50,282 nucleotides of DNA, from NCBI GenBank assembly GCA_902514485.1, contig CABXQY010000003.1, positions 1 to 50,282 of the forward strand, read 5' to 3'. The notes beneath the pieces are model-generated. The model made no database searches. It saw only the letters and a program-made list of their open reading frames with translations, and had not been told where the DNA came from. The DNA is from an uncultured Candidatus Poseidoniales archaeon (GTDB lineage Archaea > Thermoplasmatota > Poseidoniia > Poseidoniales > Thalassarchaeaceae). Shown here piece by piece: positions 22,292 through 30,730 of this stretch. The stretch's first letter is position 1, and each line of letters opens with the position of its first letter. Position numbers and translations under genes: made by a program.

Positions 22292-24049
22292 TTATGGTTT
22301 AGATAATTTCCCTGCACCTGATATTTCTGCGAGTTTCTCCATAGCAACAATGTAATCCTTTCTAGCATCTTTTTGATTATGCAGTAATATTTTTTCTGCA
22401 GAATCCCATAGCATCTTTAGAGCCGGAACCCAATCACTCCCCTTGTCTCGTGAAGACGAATCGAATCTCCAGGCATCTGACTCGGTTCTATCGTGAACAA
22501 CCAACCAAGCCCAACCCATGGATGATTCTAAACCACTGCCTTTTCTAGCCATTGAAACCGTAGAAGCGATTCCATGATCTCCTGCTTTTCGAATTAATTT
22601 ATCTGCAAAGTTTAGAGGTACTGGTAACTCATTTGTCTTCCATGGTAATAAATCGAGTTTTTTAGCAGTAGAAAGATTCGCATCTAATTCTCTTAAAAAG
22701 GCGCCAAAACCTTGCTTTCTCTGTAACTGTTTTTTGTAAATTAAATCCGCTTTTTCACCGTTTAAATCGAACATTTTTTCAAGAACAACCATTCCATATT
22801 CTTCCCATAAAGAAACCAGTAGGGGGTGGCATGAACTTTCCTCAAATCTCACAACATCGTCTTCCAAATCGAAAGTTTGACCATCTTGTCTGACGTGTAT
22901 CCCAGAATCCAAATTATCTAGTATCGTTGAAATTGCCTCTTTTTCATTCTCACTACCTGACAAATATTCTAATAATTCATTTTTACCTTCACTATCAAAC
23001 CAATTATTTCCACATACATAACCGTCTTCTATGGAATTGAGAATACTGATTCTACATTCCCTAGCTAAAACTGAATCGTCCAAAGTCATAGACATCCAAG
23101 CCAAAATTATTTCCTCTAATTTTTCCAACCCCTTTGGAGGTAGAGGTTTGTCTTCGGGCCATCCAGTCGGTCTCCAAATCCATTCTGCCTCTACAATTTC
23201 AGAAATTTTAGGAGGAAGCATTGTTAATGCAATCGAGGGAATAAAAGCCTCATCGGGTTTTGAGAGAGAACTTTGTGACAATCCTGCAACGACCCCATTC
23301 TGAAATGTAATTTTCAACCATCCTGAGTCAGTGAACATTTCATTAGTAACAGTTTCTTCATCTAGACCTTTAGACCACCTTATTTCGTCACCGGAGAACT
23401 TTATTGATGCATTATTTAGGGCGGATTCAATCCAGTCATCTGGAGCTAAAGGGGATAATCCGGTGTATTCAAATCCGTTTTTCCAAGAGAAAAACCAATG
23501 TCCAGATTTTGCATGATCATCCCAAACTAATAATCTGAGTTTATGATTATTAAAATTCTGAATGCCTGCTTGATGCGATTGTTTGCCATTACCTCTTCTA
23601 ATGAAACTAGATGACCCATAAACCGGATTGTTGAACACAGATACGGTGGAATGATCCCCATCTAATGCAGCTAACAGACTTCCAGCTAATGAGCGAGATA
23701 TCACGCAACCTCTTCTCTTCACCATTCTTTTTGCTAACCATCTTCTGTCGTGTCTCTTTGATGCAACATAGTCTATTTCTTTCAAACTAGCAGCCATCAT
23801 ATCTCTTCGAGGTTTTCCTAAATTAACATTTATTTTTGGTAGAAATATCAAAGGGTCTTCTATTAGCGAATCTAAATCTTTTTCTAACCTTTCTTGAATC
23901 TGTTTAGATGCTTGTTTTATGCCCCTCACTCGTACTTTTTTTCTGCGATTTTTATCGCCAGGAAAACTAACTTCAGCGGGACCTGCCATATTATACAAAC
24001 TAGCGAAACGATTCCTACCCTTGAGTTCGTCGATTAAAGGTTCAACCAT
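22292..24049 (-). CDS. uncharacterised 585-residue protein translationally coupled to dph5
   Basis: I do not recognise this family. The protein is soluble, with no clear signal or membrane helix. The first 140 residues are strongly basic (RRKKVRVRGIKQASKQ, KRHDRRWLAKRMVKRRG), and the C-terminal half is more acidic and Trp-rich. No Walker, zinc or nuclease motif is evident. ATG 24049 lies inside the end of dph5 (eight-base overlap ATGGTTGA) with GAAGGAAG just before it, so translation is coupled to diphthine synthase; the ORF-track TTG at 24064 is less likely. The basic N-terminus and the partner suggest a ribosome- or RNA-linked role, which is inference only. Confidence 0.75.
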   Translation of the reverse strand: MVEPLIDELKGRNRFASLYNMAGPAEVSFPGDKNRRKKVRVRGIKQASKQIQERLEKDLDSLIEDPLIFLPKINVNLGKPRRDMMAASLKEIDYVASKRHDRRWLAKRMVKRRGCVISRSLAGSLLAALDGDHSTVSVFNNPVYGSSSFIRRGNGKQSHQAGIQNFNNHKLRLLVWDDHAKSGHWFFSWKNGFEYTGLSPLAPDDWIESALNNASIKFSGDEIRWSKGLDEETVTNEMFTDSGWLKITFQNGVVAGLSQSSLSKPDEAFIPSIALTMLPPKISEIVEAEWIWRPTGWPEDKPLPPKGLEKLEEIILAWMSMTLDDSVLARECRISILNSIEDGYVCGNNWFDSEGKNELLEYLSGSENEKEAISTILDNLDSGIHVRQDGQTFDLEDDVVRFEESSCHPLLVSLWEEYGMVVLEKMFDLNGEKADLIYKKQLQRKQGFGAFLRELDANLSTAKKLDLLPWKTNELPVPLNFADKLIRKAGDHGIASTVSMARKGSGLESSMGWAWLVVHDRTESDAWRFDSSSRDKGSDWVPALKMLWDSAEKILLHNQKDARKDYIVAMEKLAEISGAGKLSKP

Positions 24050-24863
24050 TCTTCCTTCTTTCAAAGGCCTCTAACTCATTGTCATTCATATCCGACGGTA
24101 TAATCATACAGTGTATCCACCCATCTTTTAATTTAGAAAGTTGAGAAAGATTTCCCGCCCTAACTTTCTCCTCTTCCATAGAGATATCAGTCAATAAAAT
24201 CCCATTCCATTCATCGACCGGTTTTTTTAATATTTCAAATGTTGAAGTTTCTTGCAAAATTTTATTCGCCATCTTTGTTAGGAGGGCGATTGCCTCGGCT
24301 GGCTTCATTGGCGTTGGATTGACCACCCCCATTCCAGTTGGGTCCAAATCTAATAATACAAGTGTGTGTAATTTATTTTCATAATTTTTACAAATCATTT
24401 CCAGAGGTGAATGCGGCAAGTATTCACCGTAAGAAAAAGGAATGGTGACTTGTCTTCCAAATCGATACGATTGTAATCCAGATAGAGATACTGCAAGCGC
24501 CGTCGCAGTGATTCCGGGAACTACATTAAAATTAATTCCCAATTCATCACATCTTGCTTCTAAATCGACATGCGTCGTTGCTTGCATAGGATCTCCTACG
24601 ATTAAAAGAGCAACGGGGATTTCTTTGGCCATTTTCAACAATTCATCTGGGTTTTCTATATCGGGCCTCATCATCCGTTCCCATTTTCCTATCACAGACT
24701 CTAGTCTTTCTTCTTGTTTTGGAGGTAAAATTGCAGTATAACCTTCTAAATAACGCCTAGAACATGACTTTGCAATATCACTAGCATACTTACTCATGTA
24801 GTCTAAATTACCTGGTCCTAGCCCTACAAGCCAAAGGCCCGCTGGCAAACCTGTCTCCGTCAT
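24042..24863 (-). CDS. dph5: diphthine synthase
   Basis: About 273 residues. Dph5 is the SAM-dependent tetrapyrrole-methylase-fold enzyme that methylates the modified histidine of elongation factor 2 during diphthamide synthesis. LWLVGLGPGNLDYMS matches the family start (LGLYDERDIS follows GLGLGD in many homologs; here GPGNLDYMSKYASD). PVALLIVGDPMQATTHVDLEARC, VVPGITATALAVSLSGLQSYRFGRQVTIPF and TLVLLDLDP match the rest. The ORF track begins at 24899, but ATG 24863 (MTETGLPAGLW) fits the family start. It is head-to-head with the Trm5-like gene and overlaps the downstream unknown gene. Other Dph genes are not in the window. Confidence 0.9.
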   Translation of the reverse strand: MTETGLPAGLWLVGLGPGNLDYMSKYASDIAKSCSRRYLEGYTAILPPKQEERLESVIGKWERMMRPDIENPDELLKMAKEIPVALLIVGDPMQATTHVDLEARCDELGINFNVVPGITATALAVSLSGLQSYRFGRQVTIPFSYGEYLPHSPLEMICKNYENKLHTLVLLDLDPTGMGVVNPTPMKPAEAIALLTKMANKILQETSTFEILKKPVDEWNGILLTDISMEEEKVRAGNLSQLSKLKDGWIHCMIIPSDMNDNELEAFERRKNG

Positions 24864-24888: not shown

Positions 24889-26079
24889 ATGATGAACATG
24901 ATGCGGCACTTGTTAGTACCGAATAGGAAAGTAGAGGATATTCTCTCTTTGATTATGGAGAATAATTGGTTGGCCGAAGGACAGAGAATTTTCTCATCAG
25001 ATGACGGTTTTTCTAGACTAATCCCCCTCTCACCTTCGGCAGATGCTGATCTTCCGAAATCATTTTCCGACTTTGAAATAATAATTTGTGAGGGGAAATT
25101 GGATGAAAGAGTAGATACTGATTGGTGGAACCATTTAACAGAATTACTCGGTAAAGAAGTAGTATCAAAATACCAAGAATCATGGCCATCTTCTCATGAA
25201 TTTTTAGGAGATATGATGGTAGTCAGGATAAATGATGACATTAAGTCATATACGTCGGAAATCGCGAGAGCCAAACTCCTCGCCCATCCGTCGATAAGAT
25301 TGATATTATCTGATGGGGGCGTAATGGGGGAATTCCGGATTAGAGAACTAGAGGTGATTGGAGGTAGAAAAGAATCGACAATATATACTGAAAGGATTCC
25401 CTCTGAAATCAAGAGTACTAAAGTTCTGATCAAAGAATCCGGAAGATATATTTCTTGTGACCCAAAAGTTGCCTATTACTCCACTAAACTTCAAACAGAA
25501 AGGCTGGAAACTCTTGGTTTCGCCAAAGAATTGCGCGCCGAACTAAATCGTCCATTATCAATATGTGATCCATTTTGTGGAGTTGGTCCCGCTTTATCTA
25601 CATTGATTGCCGAAGAAGACTTAGTCGGTGACCTACTTGCTTCCGATTTGAATTCAGCAGCCGTAGAATTATTATTCGAGAATCTTCAAAGATGGGACAA
25701 AAGAGATTATCCTATTGAATCCGGAAATCTTCAGCGGTATTATGATGATAGAATAGTTGGATTGGCCGATGCTACAAAGATTTCCTTGAATCCTGAGTAT
25801 GCCGGAAAGTGGGATTTATTATTAGTCAATTTACCACATAGAACAGTAGAATTCCTTCCCAAGTTAGTGCCTTTACTTAATCGAACTAACACTTCAATGA
25901 TACGGGGTAGAGTAATAGTTGCCGAATCCGAAATCCCCTTAGTAAATCAAAAAATTAATCAAATCCTTCCTACCCTTGCGGCCGGTAAACCGAAGCCCGA
26001 GTTAAAAATCAAGAGAGATTATAGTAGTGCATTACGACTGTGTTCATTCGAAGCATGGATTGAGAAAGATACCATATAA
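24889..26079 (+). CDS. Trm5-family tRNA (guanine37-N1) methyltransferase-like protein
   Basis: About 396 residues with a class I SAM methyltransferase core. RHLLVPNRKVEDILSLIMENNWL resembles the N-terminal D1 region of archaeal Trm5; GEFRIRELEVIGG and YYSTKLQTERLETL match D2 (GEFRvRelE, yFSprLaTER). The SAM loop is ICDPFCGVGPALSTLI, and LLLVNLPHRTVEFL is the catalytic NLP motif. Trm5 methylates N1 of G37, and some paralogs act in wyosine synthesis. Several ATGs lie between 24862 and 24901; the first overlaps dph5's start, so I take 24889. Divergence from canonical Trm5 means a different tRNA position cannot be excluded. Confidence 0.8.
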   Translation: MMNMMRHLLVPNRKVEDILSLIMENNWLAEGQRIFSSDDGFSRLIPLSPSADADLPKSFSDFEIIICEGKLDERVDTDWWNHLTELLGKEVVSKYQESWPSSHEFLGDMMVVRINDDIKSYTSEIARAKLLAHPSIRLILSDGGVMGEFRIRELEVIGGRKESTIYTERIPSEIKSTKVLIKESGRYISCDPKVAYYSTKLQTERLETLGFAKELRAELNRPLSICDPFCGVGPALSTLIAEEDLVGDLLASDLNSAAVELLFENLQRWDKRDYPIESGNLQRYYDDRIVGLADATKISLNPEYAGKWDLLLVNLPHRTVEFLPKLVPLLNRTNTSMIRGRVIVAESEIPLVNQKINQILPTLAAGKPKPELKIKRDYSSALRLCSFEAWIEKDTI

Positions 26080-26140
26080 CAGATTCTTAGTCCAATGGTG
26101 ACCCCCTACATCATATATATCTCTTAATTCAGTCATGTTA

Positions 26141-26875
26141 TCAACTCTCTATTCTTTTTTGCGAAATAATCTTTCCTGAACCTAGTTCAAAAGCTGAAAT
26201 TCTTGGATTCGCATCTCTCTGGAGATATACTCCTGTATCGATTCCAATAGCAGAAGGCCTACCATCTTCGAGTAATTTCTTACTAATCCAAACCCTATGG
26301 TCGTCAAAAATTCCATAATTCTGAACAATGGTGTGGCCAACAATTACAGTTCTTTTTAGGTCAAATGGATAATTTACTGTAAAAATATCCCTTGACCAAA
26401 GCCTCTCATTATCTGTCTGTTGATCTAGACTCGCCATATAAGGCATATCGCAATATCCTGCATGAACTAATCTAAATTTATCTAATATGATTTCAGTAGG
26501 CAGTAAAGAAATAAATTTTCTAATTCTCTGCATTTCCTCTCTTGATAATGACTTTATCGAAGACCAAAACCCAGTTTCGGAATAATTTCCAAAACCATCA
26601 GTCTTCAGCCAATCCATCAGCAGCATTTCTTCATGGTTCCCTTTCAATGAATACAGGTTATCTTCATACATAAATAAATTTACAACGCCCACACTATCTG
26701 GGCCTCTATCTACCATATCTCCCAGACAAATTGCAATATCTTCCAATCCCAAACTAAGATTATCTATCAAGGATTCCAAAGTTTCTTTATATCCGTGAAT
26801 ATCGCCAATAATCCAAACTTTATTTCCGGAATCTAAGACATTTTGAATTTTTTTTTCTAACCGCCTATTCCTCAT
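26141..26875 (-). CDS. PPP-family metallophosphoesterase (PrpA/ApaH-like phosphatase)
   Basis: 244 residues. The PPP signatures are all present: GDIHGY (about residue 22), GDMVDRGPDS, GNHEEMLL, RLVHAGY and VGHTIVQNYG, with a late IDTGVYL. These residues bind two metal ions. Relatives are bacterial-type Ser/Thr (and Tyr/His) protein phosphatases and symmetric Ap4A hydrolases; the short length fits either. The ATG overlaps the stop of the 112-aa gene (ATGA), so it is the last cistron of the small-protein operon that begins at 28489. A signalling or nucleotide-alarmone role for that operon is therefore possible. Confidence 0.88.
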   Translation of the reverse strand: MRNRRLEKKIQNVLDSGNKVWIIGDIHGYKETLESLIDNLSLGLEDIAICLGDMVDRGPDSVGVVNLFMYEDNLYSLKGNHEEMLLMDWLKTDGFGNYSETGFWSSIKSLSREEMQRIRKFISLLPTEIILDKFRLVHAGYCDMPYMASLDQQTDNERLWSRDIFTVNYPFDLKRTVIVGHTIVQNYGIFDDHRVWISKKLLEDGRPSAIGIDTGVYLQRDANPRISAFELGSGKIISQKRIES

Positions 26876-27210
26876 TCTCCATCTCCTTTTTCAGAATTAG
26901 TAATTTTATCGGAAGGAATGATCCCAAGTTCGGGCCAAATCATCTCTTTATCCAATGTCCAACCACAATATAATGCCGACATTCCTGAAGACCAAACACT
27001 AAGAATATCCCAACGGCCTGATACACTAAATTTCCTGTAATATTCTGAAATTATTGTTATTCTTACACCCCAGTCATCAGTATTAATTTCGACAATTCCT
27101 GGAAATTGTTGCATTCTTTCTTGAAACCACATTTCAGTTCCATTCCATGATTGTACAAGAGATTCAAACAGTTCTCTTTTTTCTTTGATTTTTATTTCTT
27201 CACTCATCAT
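26872..27210 (-). CDS. uncharacterised 112-residue operon protein
   Basis: A small acidic/mixed soluble protein (SEEIKIKEKRELFESLVQ... NTDDWGVRITIISEYYRKFSVSGRWDILSVW). I recognise no family. The segment WGVRITIISEYYRKFSV followed by SGRWDILSVWSSG looks like a small alpha-beta fold. The ORF track starts at GTG 27216, but ATG 27210 overlaps the stop of the 53-aa gene as ATGA, and its own stop overlaps the phosphatase start as ATGA. It is thus the middle of a strictly coupled trio. Confidence 0.75.
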   Translation of the reverse strand: MMSEEIKIKEKRELFESLVQSWNGTEMWFQERMQQFPGIVEINTDDWGVRITIISEYYRKFSVSGRWDILSVWSSGMSALYCGWTLDKEMIWPELGIIPSDKITNSEKGDGE

Positions 27211-27368
27211 TCCCACCCCTTTGAACTTAGTTCGGCTGAGAATGCCTTGTCCAGTGTACGTTGACAGGCAGGTGGATTTTTACATACATACTTGAGATCC
27301 GACCCTCGATGGAAGTTACAGGCCTTGTTCCAGAAAGCAATAGCTTCGGGTATAGAATAGGGACACAT
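27207..27368 (-). CDS. 53-residue cysteine-containing small protein (not in ORF track)
   Basis: This ORF is below the track's length cut. It opens MCPYSIPEAIAFWNKACNF and has Cys at 2, 17, 29 and 35 and His at 20, so C17-x2-H20 with C29-x5-C35 could hold a zinc ion. GGAGGTGG lies seven bases before its ATG, which directly follows the TGA of the upstream 131-aa gene, and its own TGA overlaps the next ATG (ATGA). No other start-stop pair explains this stretch so well. I know no named family. The overlapping ORFs 27227-27415 (-) and 27261-27464 (+) lack such support. Confidence 0.75.
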   Translation of the reverse strand: MCPYSIPEAIAFWNKACNFHRGSDLKYVCKNPPACQRTLDKAFSAELSSKGWE

Positions 27369-27764
27369 TCAAGCCACCTCCGGCCCAGGTTCTTCGACAG
27401 GAGGGGCGACAACATCTTCTACGGGAGCGTATGGCGTTACGACAGCATAGGGGTCTATCTGTAGATTAAGTCCTATTTTGTTGCAGGTCATTTTTATCAT
27501 AGCTAACACATGGTATGGAGTTTTATGGTCAACTACTGTGATTACCCTGAGGGTTTTTTCGTTCACTCTTTGTAGGGTGATGCCTGCGTCGTCCATGCGC
27601 CAGTATTGCCCATCGAGACACCCCATTTGTCTTAGTAGATATGACATATTTCCATTAGATAGGGCATACGTTTCTGCCTTCTCATTTAGTGTGGGCAAGC
27701 GTTCACTTACTGTCATCGTTTTGTTATTCTCTTCATCATTTTCTTCCATTTCTTTCATTATCAT
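27369..27764 (-). CDS. uncharacterised 131-residue protein, paralog A
   Basis: Paralog of the first gene of this operon. An acidic, Asn/Glu-rich leader (about 25 residues) is followed by a core LSNGNMSYLLRQMGCLDGQYW, TLRVITVVDHKTPYHVLAMIKM and LQIDPYAVVTPY, then a Pro/Val/Glu-rich tail ending PGPEVA. The family is unknown to me. AAGGAGAT, formed by the last codons (R-R-stop) of the preceding gene, lies seven bases before ATG 27764. The final codons GAG-GTG-GCT also form the ribosome-binding site of the 53-aa gene. GC is near 50 percent in parts, above most neighbours. Confidence 0.8.
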   Translation of the reverse strand: MIMKEMEENDEENNKTMTVSERLPTLNEKAETYALSNGNMSYLLRQMGCLDGQYWRMDDAGITLQRVNEKTLRVITVVDHKTPYHVLAMIKMTCNKIGLNLQIDPYAVVTPYAPVEDVVAPPVEEPGPEVA

Positions 27765-27769
27765 TTTTT

Positions 27770-28093
27770 TTATCTCCTTTCCATATTTAATTGATAGTTA
27801 TACATTGTAGACCATACTTTTACTAAAGCATCATGATAATCATGATCACTCCGGCACTCATCCTTGAAACTCGTATATCCAACTTCTTGACCCAACTTTA
27901 ATAAAATCGGAAAAACCTTTTCTTTTTCTATTGTTATTCTAAATCTATAATCGGCCCAATCTATGACTTCTATGTCCATTTCTGGCCACAATATCTCTAG
28001 TGGTTCAACCACTCTTGATTTTACTTGAAAACAATCTTCAAGCGAGTTATGCTGCACTACACTAAAAAATCCATATTTTGTAAAAATCCACAT
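27770..28093 (-). CDS. uncharacterised 107-residue protein (MWxFTxxGFFSxVQH type)
   Basis: Begins MWIFTKYGFFSVVQHNSLED and ends VGYTSFKDE...DYHDALVKVWSTM. From memory, this pattern (MW[IL]xT..GF[FY]S[AV]V.H at the start, D-Y-x-x-F-K and a late VWxxM) is shared with a family of small uncharacterised proteins in bacteria and their phages; I cannot name it and a search is needed. The ATG follows the TAA of the upstream gene with no gap and is served by GGAGGTGG in that gene's last codons. Its GC (about 27 percent in one 60-base line) is far below the flanking 131-aa genes, so it has a different compositional history. Confidence 0.78.
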   Translation of the reverse strand: MWIFTKYGFFSVVQHNSLEDCFQVKSRVVEPLEILWPEMDIEVIDWADYRFRITIEKEKVFPILLKLGQEVGYTSFKDECRSDHDYHDALVKVWSTMYNYQLNMERR

Positions 28094-28489
28094 TTAAGCC
28101 ACCTCCAAGCCAGGCACACTCCCATTGTCATCTCCGGAGCCACCTTCTTCGACTGCTATGTATGGCATAACCAGTGTATAGGGGGCCAACTCTAACTCTA
28201 TGTTTGCAGCTTCGAAAGCCACCTTCATCACCATGAGGCCAGAAAAAGGCAACCAGTGGTCGACTACTGCTATGCACCTTACAGTATCTTCAGTTACCTT
28301 CTGTATGTGTACGCCCTCCACCCACAGCGTTTCACCAGTCCTGTACGCGTCCATGAACCCATGGGCCCAGGACAGGTTTTGGTGACTTAGCGCGGCCACG
28401 ACGTCTGCTTCGTCCAACTCTGGCAGGTCTCTTGGAACCTCTCGAGAGGCAGTCTCTTGCGTGTTGTTATTTTTATTACTTTCATTCAT
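28094..28489 (-). CDS. uncharacterised 131-residue protein, paralog B (operon leader)
   Basis: The same length as paralog A and alignable along the core: LSHQNLSWAHGFMDAYRTGETLW, TVRCIAVVDHWLPFSGLMVMKV, LELAPYTLVMPYIAVEE and an end PGLEVA. A polar Asn/Glu-rich leader of about 25 residues precedes the core, as in A. No known motif. AAGGAGAC precedes ATG 28489 by a spacing similar to the other genes of the operon. By hand count over five 60-base lines its GC is about 52 percent, clearly above the following 107-aa gene. It heads the run that ends with the PPP phosphatase. Confidence 0.8.
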   Translation of the reverse strand: MNESNKNNNTQETASREVPRDLPELDEADVVAALSHQNLSWAHGFMDAYRTGETLWVEGVHIQKVTEDTVRCIAVVDHWLPFSGLMVMKVAFEAANIELELAPYTLVMPYIAVEEGGSGDDNGSVPGLEVA

Positions 28490-28590
28490 AATTTTTGTCT
28501 CCTTGGGGTTTTCCCCACACTAGAGACTACTATTAGAAAAAAAAGCATCACTGAAAGCCTTAAATCAACTTAGTGCATCACATTATTAGT
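28490..28590. promoter_or_regulatory. divergent promoter with shared TATA region and a GGGG/CCCC hairpin
   Basis: CTTAAATC at 28559-28566 lies 25-32 bases before ATG 28591, the expected TATA position for a leaderless mRNA. The same AT-rich block read on the minus strand (GATTTAAGG) can serve the small-protein operon. Next to that operon's Shine-Dalgarno site lies a four-pair stem, GGGG-AAAA-CCCC on the minus strand (28505-28516), which would form in the leader mRNA and could affect ribosome access. Confidence 0.5.
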
Positions 28591-29637
28591 ATGGGCGAAT
28601 TTAAGGGTGGGGGAACGTCATTTCCTACGGAGATCCCGTGCCCTATTTGTGAAGGTAACAAATGTAGTGTATGTGATATGGGACCTTCATTGGAGGATAT
28701 TATTCATTGCACACATTTTGATTTGAAAGGGAAAAAATACCGTAAAAGAATATGTGAATGCGTTGAAGGAGAAATTGGCTGGACCAATAAATCAGGGAAA
28801 TGGGAGAAGCTAGGTGAAAAAACAATCAAGACCAAAGAAAGGGACTTCATCACCAAACCGGTCATTAAACAATTAAAGATAGTCCATACGACCAGATGGG
28901 AAAATAAATACAATCTTAAAAAAAGGTTCGGAAACAGAGCCCGCTCATCTTTAAGAATTAGCAAAAACGTCCTTGACATATTGAATAGCCAAACCGGTCC
29001 AGCTGGTAGAAGTGCTAGGAAACAGTTTGCACAAGGCCTTCCGGCTAGTGGAAATACGCATAGAATGCGGAGACAAATACTTCTTTTATTCCATACAGAT
29101 AGCGAATATTTACTCAGGCTTCTTGAAAGTTATTTGTCCAACCCCGAATATAGGAAAAAGATAGACTCAATAAGAGGTAAAGAAATTCACAATGTAGTCG
29201 CCCATCTACCAGTATTAGAGCGAGCAACCGATGATTTAATCGATAAAATCTTATTGAAAAAGGAAGCAACACAGTCCTCTATCGCTGAAAAAAAATTAGA
29301 ATTTTTAAAACATCCACTTTTGAAAGAGAAATCAATGTGGCGATGGAATTTATGCAGATTAATTGAACTTAGAGTTATACATAAAAAATGTCAATTAGAA
29401 TTTCCACAAGACGTAGATACAGAGACTACTGCCGACGCATATGATCGCTTGTATGGAAAAACATTTGCCATTATAACTGACAAAAATGCCAAAAATGATT
29501 CCATTGAAATGATAGAAATCCCTTTCATAGATAAGATTTCAGGCGAATGGAAAGAGAGAACCGTGGAACTAAGGCGAGATACCCAAGATAAAACCCTAGA
29601 CGAATTTGGAGATGAAGAAGAAGCAGAAGGGCCTTGA
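28591..29637 (+). CDS. uncharacterised protein with N-terminal zinc motif
   Basis: About 348 residues. The start EIPCPICEGNKCSVCDMGP has a CxxCxxxxCxxC cluster, followed by ECTHF-like CTHF and CECVEG, so one or two zinc sites are likely near residues 10-60. The middle is very basic and helical (RWENKYNLKKRFGNRARSSLRISKN; SARKQFAQGLPASGNTHRMRRQ), suggesting nucleic-acid binding. The tail is acidic (FGDEEEAEGP). I know no family. ATG 28591 is preferred over the track's GTG 28573 because of the TATA box 25 bases upstream. It is divergent from the small-protein operon and may share its control region. Confidence 0.75.
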   Translation: MGEFKGGGTSFPTEIPCPICEGNKCSVCDMGPSLEDIIHCTHFDLKGKKYRKRICECVEGEIGWTNKSGKWEKLGEKTIKTKERDFITKPVIKQLKIVHTTRWENKYNLKKRFGNRARSSLRISKNVLDILNSQTGPAGRSARKQFAQGLPASGNTHRMRRQILLLFHTDSEYLLRLLESYLSNPEYRKKIDSIRGKEIHNVVAHLPVLERATDDLIDKILLKKEATQSSIAEKKLEFLKHPLLKEKSMWRWNLCRLIELRVIHKKCQLEFPQDVDTETTADAYDRLYGKTFAIITDKNAKNDSIEMIEIPFIDKISGEWKERTVELRRDTQDKTLDEFGDEEEAEGP

Positions 29638-29686
29638 AAAGTGTACAAAGGATTAGTATTATGTATCTCATTAGTGTCGTACAACA

Positions 29687-30730
29687 ATGAGTCGTTTGAA
29701 AATCAAGGACGTTCTCAAGACAAAACGAGATAAAACAATCGCTATATTCTTAGTATCTACATTCTTGTTCTCAGTCGCTTACATCGGTATTGGATATACC
29801 GTCGCATCACAAGGGATCTCCGCAAATCCTGGTTGTGGCATGTGGGCATCTAATACACCCGATAATTGGACCACTAACGATGATTGGGAGAGTTTCGAAC
29901 CATGGAATGATTCCGAAGAGCGTATTGACATAAGAAAAAATTTCGATGTATCTAATTATCAATACCAGTATGAAAACGCTTCATTTGAACCTAGAGGCGA
30001 ATCTGGCATCACTTTACGTGGTTGGTATATAGAAATTGATCCAAATGCTCCTGTAGTTATACAAACACACGGAATGCCTCAGAATGGTAAATGCAAACCA
30101 GAGATGTTGTTGATGCAAGGATATCTTGCAGAGGCAGGAATCAATAGTCTTTCTTTCGATCTAAGAAATTATGGAGATAGCGACGTTGTAAGCGATTATG
30201 TCAGTATAGGGCAAAAAGAATACAAAGACATCCTTGGAGCTTATGATTGGTTAGTTTCTGAAAAGGGATATTCACCCGGAGAAGTTGGAATGACTGCCTT
30301 CTCACTTGGTGGTGGAGCGGCAATTGCCTTTGCAGATGAACCAGGAATAGGGGCAATGTGGCTAGATAGTGCCGTACTTGACTTCCCATTAGTCATAAAG
30401 AACGAATTAGATCGATTGGGATTCCCGTCTAGCTTCGCAGGACCAGGTGTCAGAGTTGGAGGATGGCTCGCAGGAGTCAGCCTTACTGAACGTTCACCAC
30501 TAGAAGCAGCAGATAATGCGGAAGGCCGACCAGTATTCCTTACACACGGAAAAGAAGACCCCAGAGTATCAATCGAACATTCTGAAACATTTGAGGAAAG
30601 AATGATTTCTAATGATGCTAACGTTACAACATGGTATGTTGAGCAAAGAGGACATGTAGATGCTTTATGGGGCAATTCAGAAGAATATAGCTCCAAATTA
30701 GCAGAGTTCTTCTCTAACGCCCTAGTTTAG
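29687..30730 (+). CDS. membrane-anchored alpha/beta hydrolase
   Basis: 347 residues. One N-terminal helix (IAIFLVSTFLFSVAYIGIGYTVA, residues 18-40) anchors it, probably with the catalytic domain outside. The hydrolase fold shows VVIQTHGMPQNGKC (oxyanion region), the nucleophile elbow TAFSLGGG, a late Asp in HGKEDPRVSIEHSE and the catalytic His in EQRGHVDALW. It resembles the ABHD13/BEM46-like branch. An extra Trp/Asp-rich segment at residues 45-80 has no counterpart I recognise. Substrate unknown; esterase or peptidase activity is possible. Confidence 0.85.
   Translation: MSRLKIKDVLKTKRDKTIAIFLVSTFLFSVAYIGIGYTVASQGISANPGCGMWASNTPDNWTTNDDWESFEPWNDSEERIDIRKNFDVSNYQYQYENASFEPRGESGITLRGWYIEIDPNAPVVIQTHGMPQNGKCKPEMLLMQGYLAEAGINSLSFDLRNYGDSDVVSDYVSIGQKEYKDILGAYDWLVSEKGYSPGEVGMTAFSLGGGAAIAFADEPGIGAMWLDSAVLDFPLVIKNELDRLGFPSSFAGPGVRVGGWLAGVSLTERSPLEAADNAEGRPVFLTHGKEDPRVSIEHSETFEERMISNDANVTTWYVEQRGHVDALWGNSEEYSSKLAEFFSNALV

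What the first reader, a model, noticed from the sequence alone, without database searches (positions are those of the whole stretch)
27366..28096. Two paralogs end in codons that double as the next gene's ribosome-binding site
Paralogs A and B (131 aa each) both end P-G-x-E-V-A-stop. The codons GAG-GTG-GCT give GGAGGTGGC, an almost full Shine-Dalgarno match, and the stop is followed at once by ATG (TAA-ATG after B, TGA-ATG after A). The proteins differ greatly but this junction is kept in both, so selection may act on coupling as well as on protein. It looks like a duplicated cassette: a 131-aa gene plus a switchable downstream partner (107 aa in one case, 53 aa in the other).
Basis: partly seen in the sequence, partly recalled or inferred. 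Interest (0 to 1): 0.7.

Follow-up and report, generated by a model that had tools for sequence, protein, structure and literature searches.

The report
Archaeal gene junction with swappable partners
In marine Group II archaea, a small unnamed gene nearly always ends in codons that also serve as the ribosome-binding site of whatever gene follows, and different small genes have been swapped in at exactly that point, so the sequence records evolution acting on the link between genes as well as on the proteins.

Summary
A (27369-27764 -) and B (28094-28489 -) are paralogs (33% identity) of a family with no Pfam, PHROGs, NCBIfam or PADLOC match, found in 46 of 318 Poseidoniales genomes. Of 49 homologous genes, 44 run straight into the next start codon (TGA/TAA-ATG or TGATG); six more divergent homologs do the same. 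The consensus end is GGC ATG GAG GTG GCY TGA ATG, with seven bases complementary to the anti-Shine-Dalgarno of relatives. GAG and GTG are used far above each gene's own codon usage, also after dereplication, and the junction beats other tight gene pairs in the same loci (SD of 6 or more in 39/43 versus 3/35). Downstream cassettes keep the SD spacing in all three frames, so the ribosome site, not mainly the peptide, is selected. Partners are switchable: near-identical 131-aa genes precede different ORFs, usually leading to the 107-aa 'MW' gene and a protein phosphatase; MW is fused to a phosphatase in two genomes. The operon sits in a ~3.7 kb insertion missing from sister species. The mechanism (termination-reinitiation with an intragenic SD) is known; the operon, its modularity and its families appear new. 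What the proteins do is inferred.

The parts
28094..28489 (-). Paralog B, 131-aa family ('F131'); predicted alpha/beta domain plus disordered tail ending GLEVA
28100..28106 (-). GGAGGTG inside the last codons of B; 6 nt before the ATG of the 107-aa gene
   Evidence: anti-SD GGATCACCTCCT in relatives
27770..28093 (-). 'MW' gene, 107 aa, the usual end partner of F131; distant relatives in phages, plasmids and viral contigs
27369..27764 (-). Paralog A, 131 aa; an extra gene relative to the related operon in G061
27375..27381 (-). GGAGGTG inside the last codons of A; 6 nt before the ATG of the 53-aa gene
27207..27368 (-). 'MCPY' gene, 53 aa, Cys/His-rich; recurrent cassette in both families of the order; ends in SD-like AAAGGGGTGGGAATGATG in another frame
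26872..27207 (-). 'F114' gene, 111 aa from the ATG coupled to the 53-aa gene (114 aa if read from GTG at 27216)
26141..26875 (-). PPP-type metallophosphatase (protein-serine/threonine phosphatase-like), -4 overlap with F114
28573..29637 (+). Divergent gene 'c3' (ATG at 28594 also possible); its cluster is present in 21 loci, divergent to F131
26070..29786 (.). Inserted block: absent between the TYW2-like gene and the alpha/beta-hydrolase gene in sister species

Best explanation
This is a horizontally moved operon of small genes, translated one after another by termination-reinitiation. The last codons of the 131-aa gene (NNG GAG GTG GCY or GTC, then TGA or TAA) hold a seven-base Shine-Dalgarno sequence at a fixed distance from a start codon that touches or overlaps the stop, so a ribosome finishing the 131-aa protein is placed on the next gene (anatomy and conservation shown; ribosome behaviour inferred from published work in Haloferax and E. 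coli). Because the inserted genes also tend to carry the next gene's ribosome site in their own 3' ends, small ORFs can be gained, lost or exchanged at this point without breaking expression of the distal MW and phosphatase genes (exchange shown by comparison; recombination route not shown). The 131-aa, MW and cassette proteins most likely work with the operon's protein phosphatase as binding or targeting subunits made in step with each other (inferred from gene order and the MW-DSP fusion).
For: Junction kept in 44 of 49 homologs and six more divergent ones. Codon excess robust to dereplication. SD core 7-8 nt from the start; in downstream cassettes it falls in frames 0, 1 and 2 at spacing mostly 7-9. 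Anti-SD of relatives is GGATCACCTCCT. Uncoupled members lack GGAGG. Three unrelated coupled gene pairs also end EVA or EVV, one of them KKEVA TGA ATG in G311. Partner exchange between close relatives: G280, G291 and G293 carry 0, 149 and 354 nt inserts with 85-93% identical 131-aa ends; G311 and G312 carry a 114-aa versus a 57-aa gene; at least 14 changes between direct MW and insert on a 47-gene tree. Window versus G061: the alignment is continuous in G061 while the window has 395 extra nt, gene A, with both ends at the SD motif. Empty site in sister species. MW fused to a DSP. Termination-reinitiation helped by intragenic SD: PMC6728339; need for overlap or near-zero gap and enrichment for complex subunits: PMC10666635.
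Against: No expression data. No fold match for the 131-aa or MW model, so the phosphatase link rests on gene order and fusion only. The terminal peptide may also be selected: uncoupled G240 second copy lost the SD but ends F-D-V-V. Junctions further down the operon have a strong SD less often (11/43 with 6 or more; p = 0.07 against baseline). The phosphatase type differs between loci and some loci show none nearby.
Confidence: 0.78

Rival explanations
1. The C-terminal peptide (hydrophobic-E-V-A/V) is what is selected, as a binding or degradation tag of the 131-aa protein; the SD match is a by-product.
For: The peptide follows a variable, predicted-disordered tail. The last codon is nearly always A or V although the SD does not need it. 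Uncoupled G240 second copy (F-D-V-V) and G199 (V-E-V-C) keep a similar peptide with a lost or weakened SD.
Against: Strong synonymous bias to GAG and GTG and G before GAG whatever the residue; cassettes keep SD spacing with other peptides in other frames; unrelated proteins end the same way at coupled junctions.
Confidence: 0.12
2. The conserved stretch is a DNA recombination site at which ORF cassettes are inserted, as in an integron; the SD role is secondary.
For: Exact exchange of ORFs at the junction with conserved flanks; some inserts are bounded by near direct repeats (G311, G293); gene A's breakpoints lie in the motif.
Against: Not every insert ends in the same repeat (RWN and GGVC types); no recombinase was recognised among the proteins scanned; four of eight motif occurrences checked outside the family (three distinct gene pairs) were also coupled gene ends, as an SD origin predicts.
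Confidence: 0.1
3. The junction was inherited without special selection (relatedness of the sequences).
For: Many homologs share ancestry, and GMEVA dominates in one family of the order.
Against: The rest of the protein has diverged to 20-50% identity and the tail just before the motif is barely alignable; significance remains with representatives under 45% identity; uncoupled copies lost GGAGG.
Confidence: 0.03

Closest known systems
Translational coupling by termination-reinitiation with intragenic SD in archaea and bacteria (PMC6728339, PMC10666635)
   Same: Stop and start touch or overlap; SD in the 3' end of the upstream gene; co-directed genes.
   Different: Here the spacing is mostly 0 (TGA-ATG) rather than the usual -4 or -1, the SD is unusually strong and conserved across one family, and the downstream gene changes while the junction stays.
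Integron gene cassettes
   Same: Interchangeable small ORFs at one fixed position.
   Different: No integrase or attC recognised; cassettes carry the next gene's SD rather than a recombination hairpin; the position is inside an operon, before MW.
Phosphatase-bearing operons: DSP (PTP-SAK/CDKN3-like) or PPP metallophosphatase
   Same: Standard phosphatase domains at the distal end.
   Different: Preceded by undescribed 131-aa, MW and cassette families; in two genomes MW is fused to the DSP.

Membership tests
Termination-reinitiation coupled gene pair | Co-directed genes whose stop and start overlap or nearly touch | tested here: met
   Offset 0 or -1 in 44 of 49 homologs
Termination-reinitiation coupled gene pair | SD sequence inside the upstream gene at workable distance, matching the organism's 16S 3' end | tested here: met
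   SD of 6 or more in 39/43, spacing 7-8; anti-SD read in relatives including one of the same genus, not in the window's own incomplete genome
Termination-reinitiation coupled gene pair | Downstream translation depends on upstream translation | not testable with these tools
   Needs a reporter assay
Integron-type cassette array | Exchangeable ORFs at a fixed site | tested here: met
Integron-type cassette array | Linked tyrosine recombinase and attC-like sites | tested here: inconclusive
   No recombinase among the proteins scanned; not every neighbour was scanned and attC was not modelled
Known anti-phage defence system | Match to a defence protein family | tested here: not met
   No PADLOC match for the operon proteins; only a neighbouring ThiF protein in other loci matched weakly
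PPP-type metallophosphatase (window 26141-26875) | Metallophos domain with GDxHG, GDxxDRG and GNHE motifs | tested here: met
   PF00149 E 8e-14; motifs read in the translation; nearest NCBIfam models are below their cut-offs

The most novel reading that the evidence does not exclude
The SD-stop-start junction acts as a dedicated gene slot: its short repeated sequence promotes gain, loss and exchange of ORFs, giving these archaea a pool of interchangeable subunits for a mobile phosphatase complex, each automatically expressed in step with the 131-aa protein.
Probability: 0.25. Interest if true: 0.78.

Novelty: new variant of a known kind. Interest (0 to 1): 0.52.

Why it matters
It is a natural experiment separating selection on a protein's end from selection on the next gene's ribosome site: the same junction is kept while partners and even reading frames change. 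It also describes a mobile, modular operon of undescribed small proteins tied to protein phosphatases in uncultured ocean archaea, including the assembled MG-II chromosome CM001443.

Tried and rejected
Provirus origin: no F131 match in phage records or viral contigs; MW has distant relatives there but without this junction in those inspected. Dispersed DNA motif: GGAGGTGGYYTGA occurs only twice in the window's genome. Defence system: no PADLOC hit. Fold-based function: no significant PDB or BFVD match, VIA Z at most 4.5. A first 16S fragment (L196) was bacterial contamination and was discarded. G191 looked like an exception but has an N gap at the junction. A ubiquitin-like (PRTRC) link was considered because ThiF genes lie beside the operon in some genomes, but none was seen beside it in the window; one literature search gave nothing useful.

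Full report
Observation. On the minus strand B ends TTG GAG GTG GCT TAA followed at once by the ATG of a 107-aa ORF, and A ends CCG GAG GTG GCT TGA followed at once by the ATG of a 53-aa ORF. A and B are paralogs, 33% identical. Neither they nor the small neighbours match Pfam, PHROGs, NCBIfam or PADLOC.

Family. A profile search of the order found the family in 46 of 318 genomes, in 13 of 22 genera. Record titles of matching MW loci name Poseidonia and Candidatus Poseidoniales, including the MG-II chromosome CM001443. The protein is predicted as a confident alpha/beta domain with a low-confidence, probably disordered tail of variable length; the last residues are conserved again, mostly GMEVA.

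The junction. Of 49 homologous genes, 38 have the next start directly after the stop and 6 overlap it by one base. Six divergent genes, found only because MW lies next to them, also end GMEVA or SMEVV and run straight into MW. The Glu codon is GAG in 41/45 (46% expected from the same genes), the Val codon GTG in 40/47 (23% expected), and the codon before GAG encodes several amino acids but ends in G in 42 of 49. After reduction to 28 sequences under 45% identity the bias stays (p = 8e-6, 5e-11). Relatives' 16S ends GGATCACCTCCT, so GGAGGTG can pair over seven bases. Against other tight gene pairs in the same loci the junction is exceptional, 39/43 versus 3/35. That baseline set is small and rests on a simple ORF caller.

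Coupling or peptide. Cassettes inserted downstream also often end in SD-like sequence, but in all three frames: KEVA, RWN/RWQ, GGVC. Three unrelated gene pairs in these archaea end EVA or EVV at a coupled start. Members without a coupled partner lack GGAGG. These favour selection on the ribosome site. Some selection on the peptide is not excluded: one uncoupled copy ends FDVV.

Switchable partners. Downstream of the 131-aa gene lies MW directly, or one to three small ORFs and then MW: MW was found for 40 of 47 entries, at -1 to 545 nt. Closely related 131-aa genes differ in partner: G280 none, G291 a 49-aa and G293 a 117-aa ORF in the same kind of chromosomal neighbourhood; G311 114 aa versus G312 57 aa; G105 none versus G103 57 aa. 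The tree needs at least 14 changes between direct MW and insert (a quick tree with many weak forks). Compared with G061, the window has exactly one extra gene, A, with breakpoints in the SD motif.

Context. After MW comes a dual-specificity phosphatase in many loci; in the window the distal genes are the 53-aa gene, F114 and a PPP-type metallophosphatase. In G273 and G274 MW is fused to a DSP-like domain; the Pfam match was run on the G273 protein. A divergent gene cluster, c3, is present in 21 loci. In sister species the TYW2-like and hydrolase genes that flank the block are neighbours about 110-170 nt apart, so the 3.7-kb block is an insertion.

Mechanism. Shown: anatomy, conservation, codon bias, frame independence, partner exchange, presence/absence of the block. 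Taken from the literature: termination-reinitiation helped by intragenic SD, with strong need for near-zero spacing, enriched among subunits of complexes (PMC6728339, PMC10666635). Inferred: that ribosomes reinitiate here, that the proteins form a complex with the phosphatase, and that the motif helps recombination.

Verdict. The molecular principle is known; the family, the modular operon and the degree of junction conservation appear new, within the limits of the libraries and papers searched.

Noticed in passing
L149:5915-6790 (G273), L150 (G274): MW domain fused to a dual-specificity-type phosphatase in one ORF, hinting that MW works with the phosphatase.
   Followed up: partly
L065, L077, L080, L082: A ThiF (E1-like) gene with a conserved companion lies close to the 131-aa gene in G143, G196, G225 and G199, reminiscent of PRTRC-type or E1-E2 modules.
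   Followed up: partly
L190 (G045), around 2030-2110: The otherwise empty site keeps about 60 nt resembling the 3' end of the window's metallophosphatase gene, suggesting past presence and loss of the block.
   Followed up: partly
L123, L124, L125; L201-L226: MW-like genes in bacteriophages and viral contigs; in two phages a NUDIX gene lies just upstream.
   Followed up: partly
L196 (G046:C25): Bacterial rRNA operon in an archaeal MAG, a contaminating contig.
   Followed up: yes
window 28573-29637: Divergent conserved gene c3, no Pfam family; many relatives carry a conserved FKRxWAPAxCRLLEL-like stretch; possible regulator.
   Followed up: partly
window 22292-24064: 590-aa ORF next to diphthine synthase with no Pfam or NCBIfam match.
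   Followed up: no
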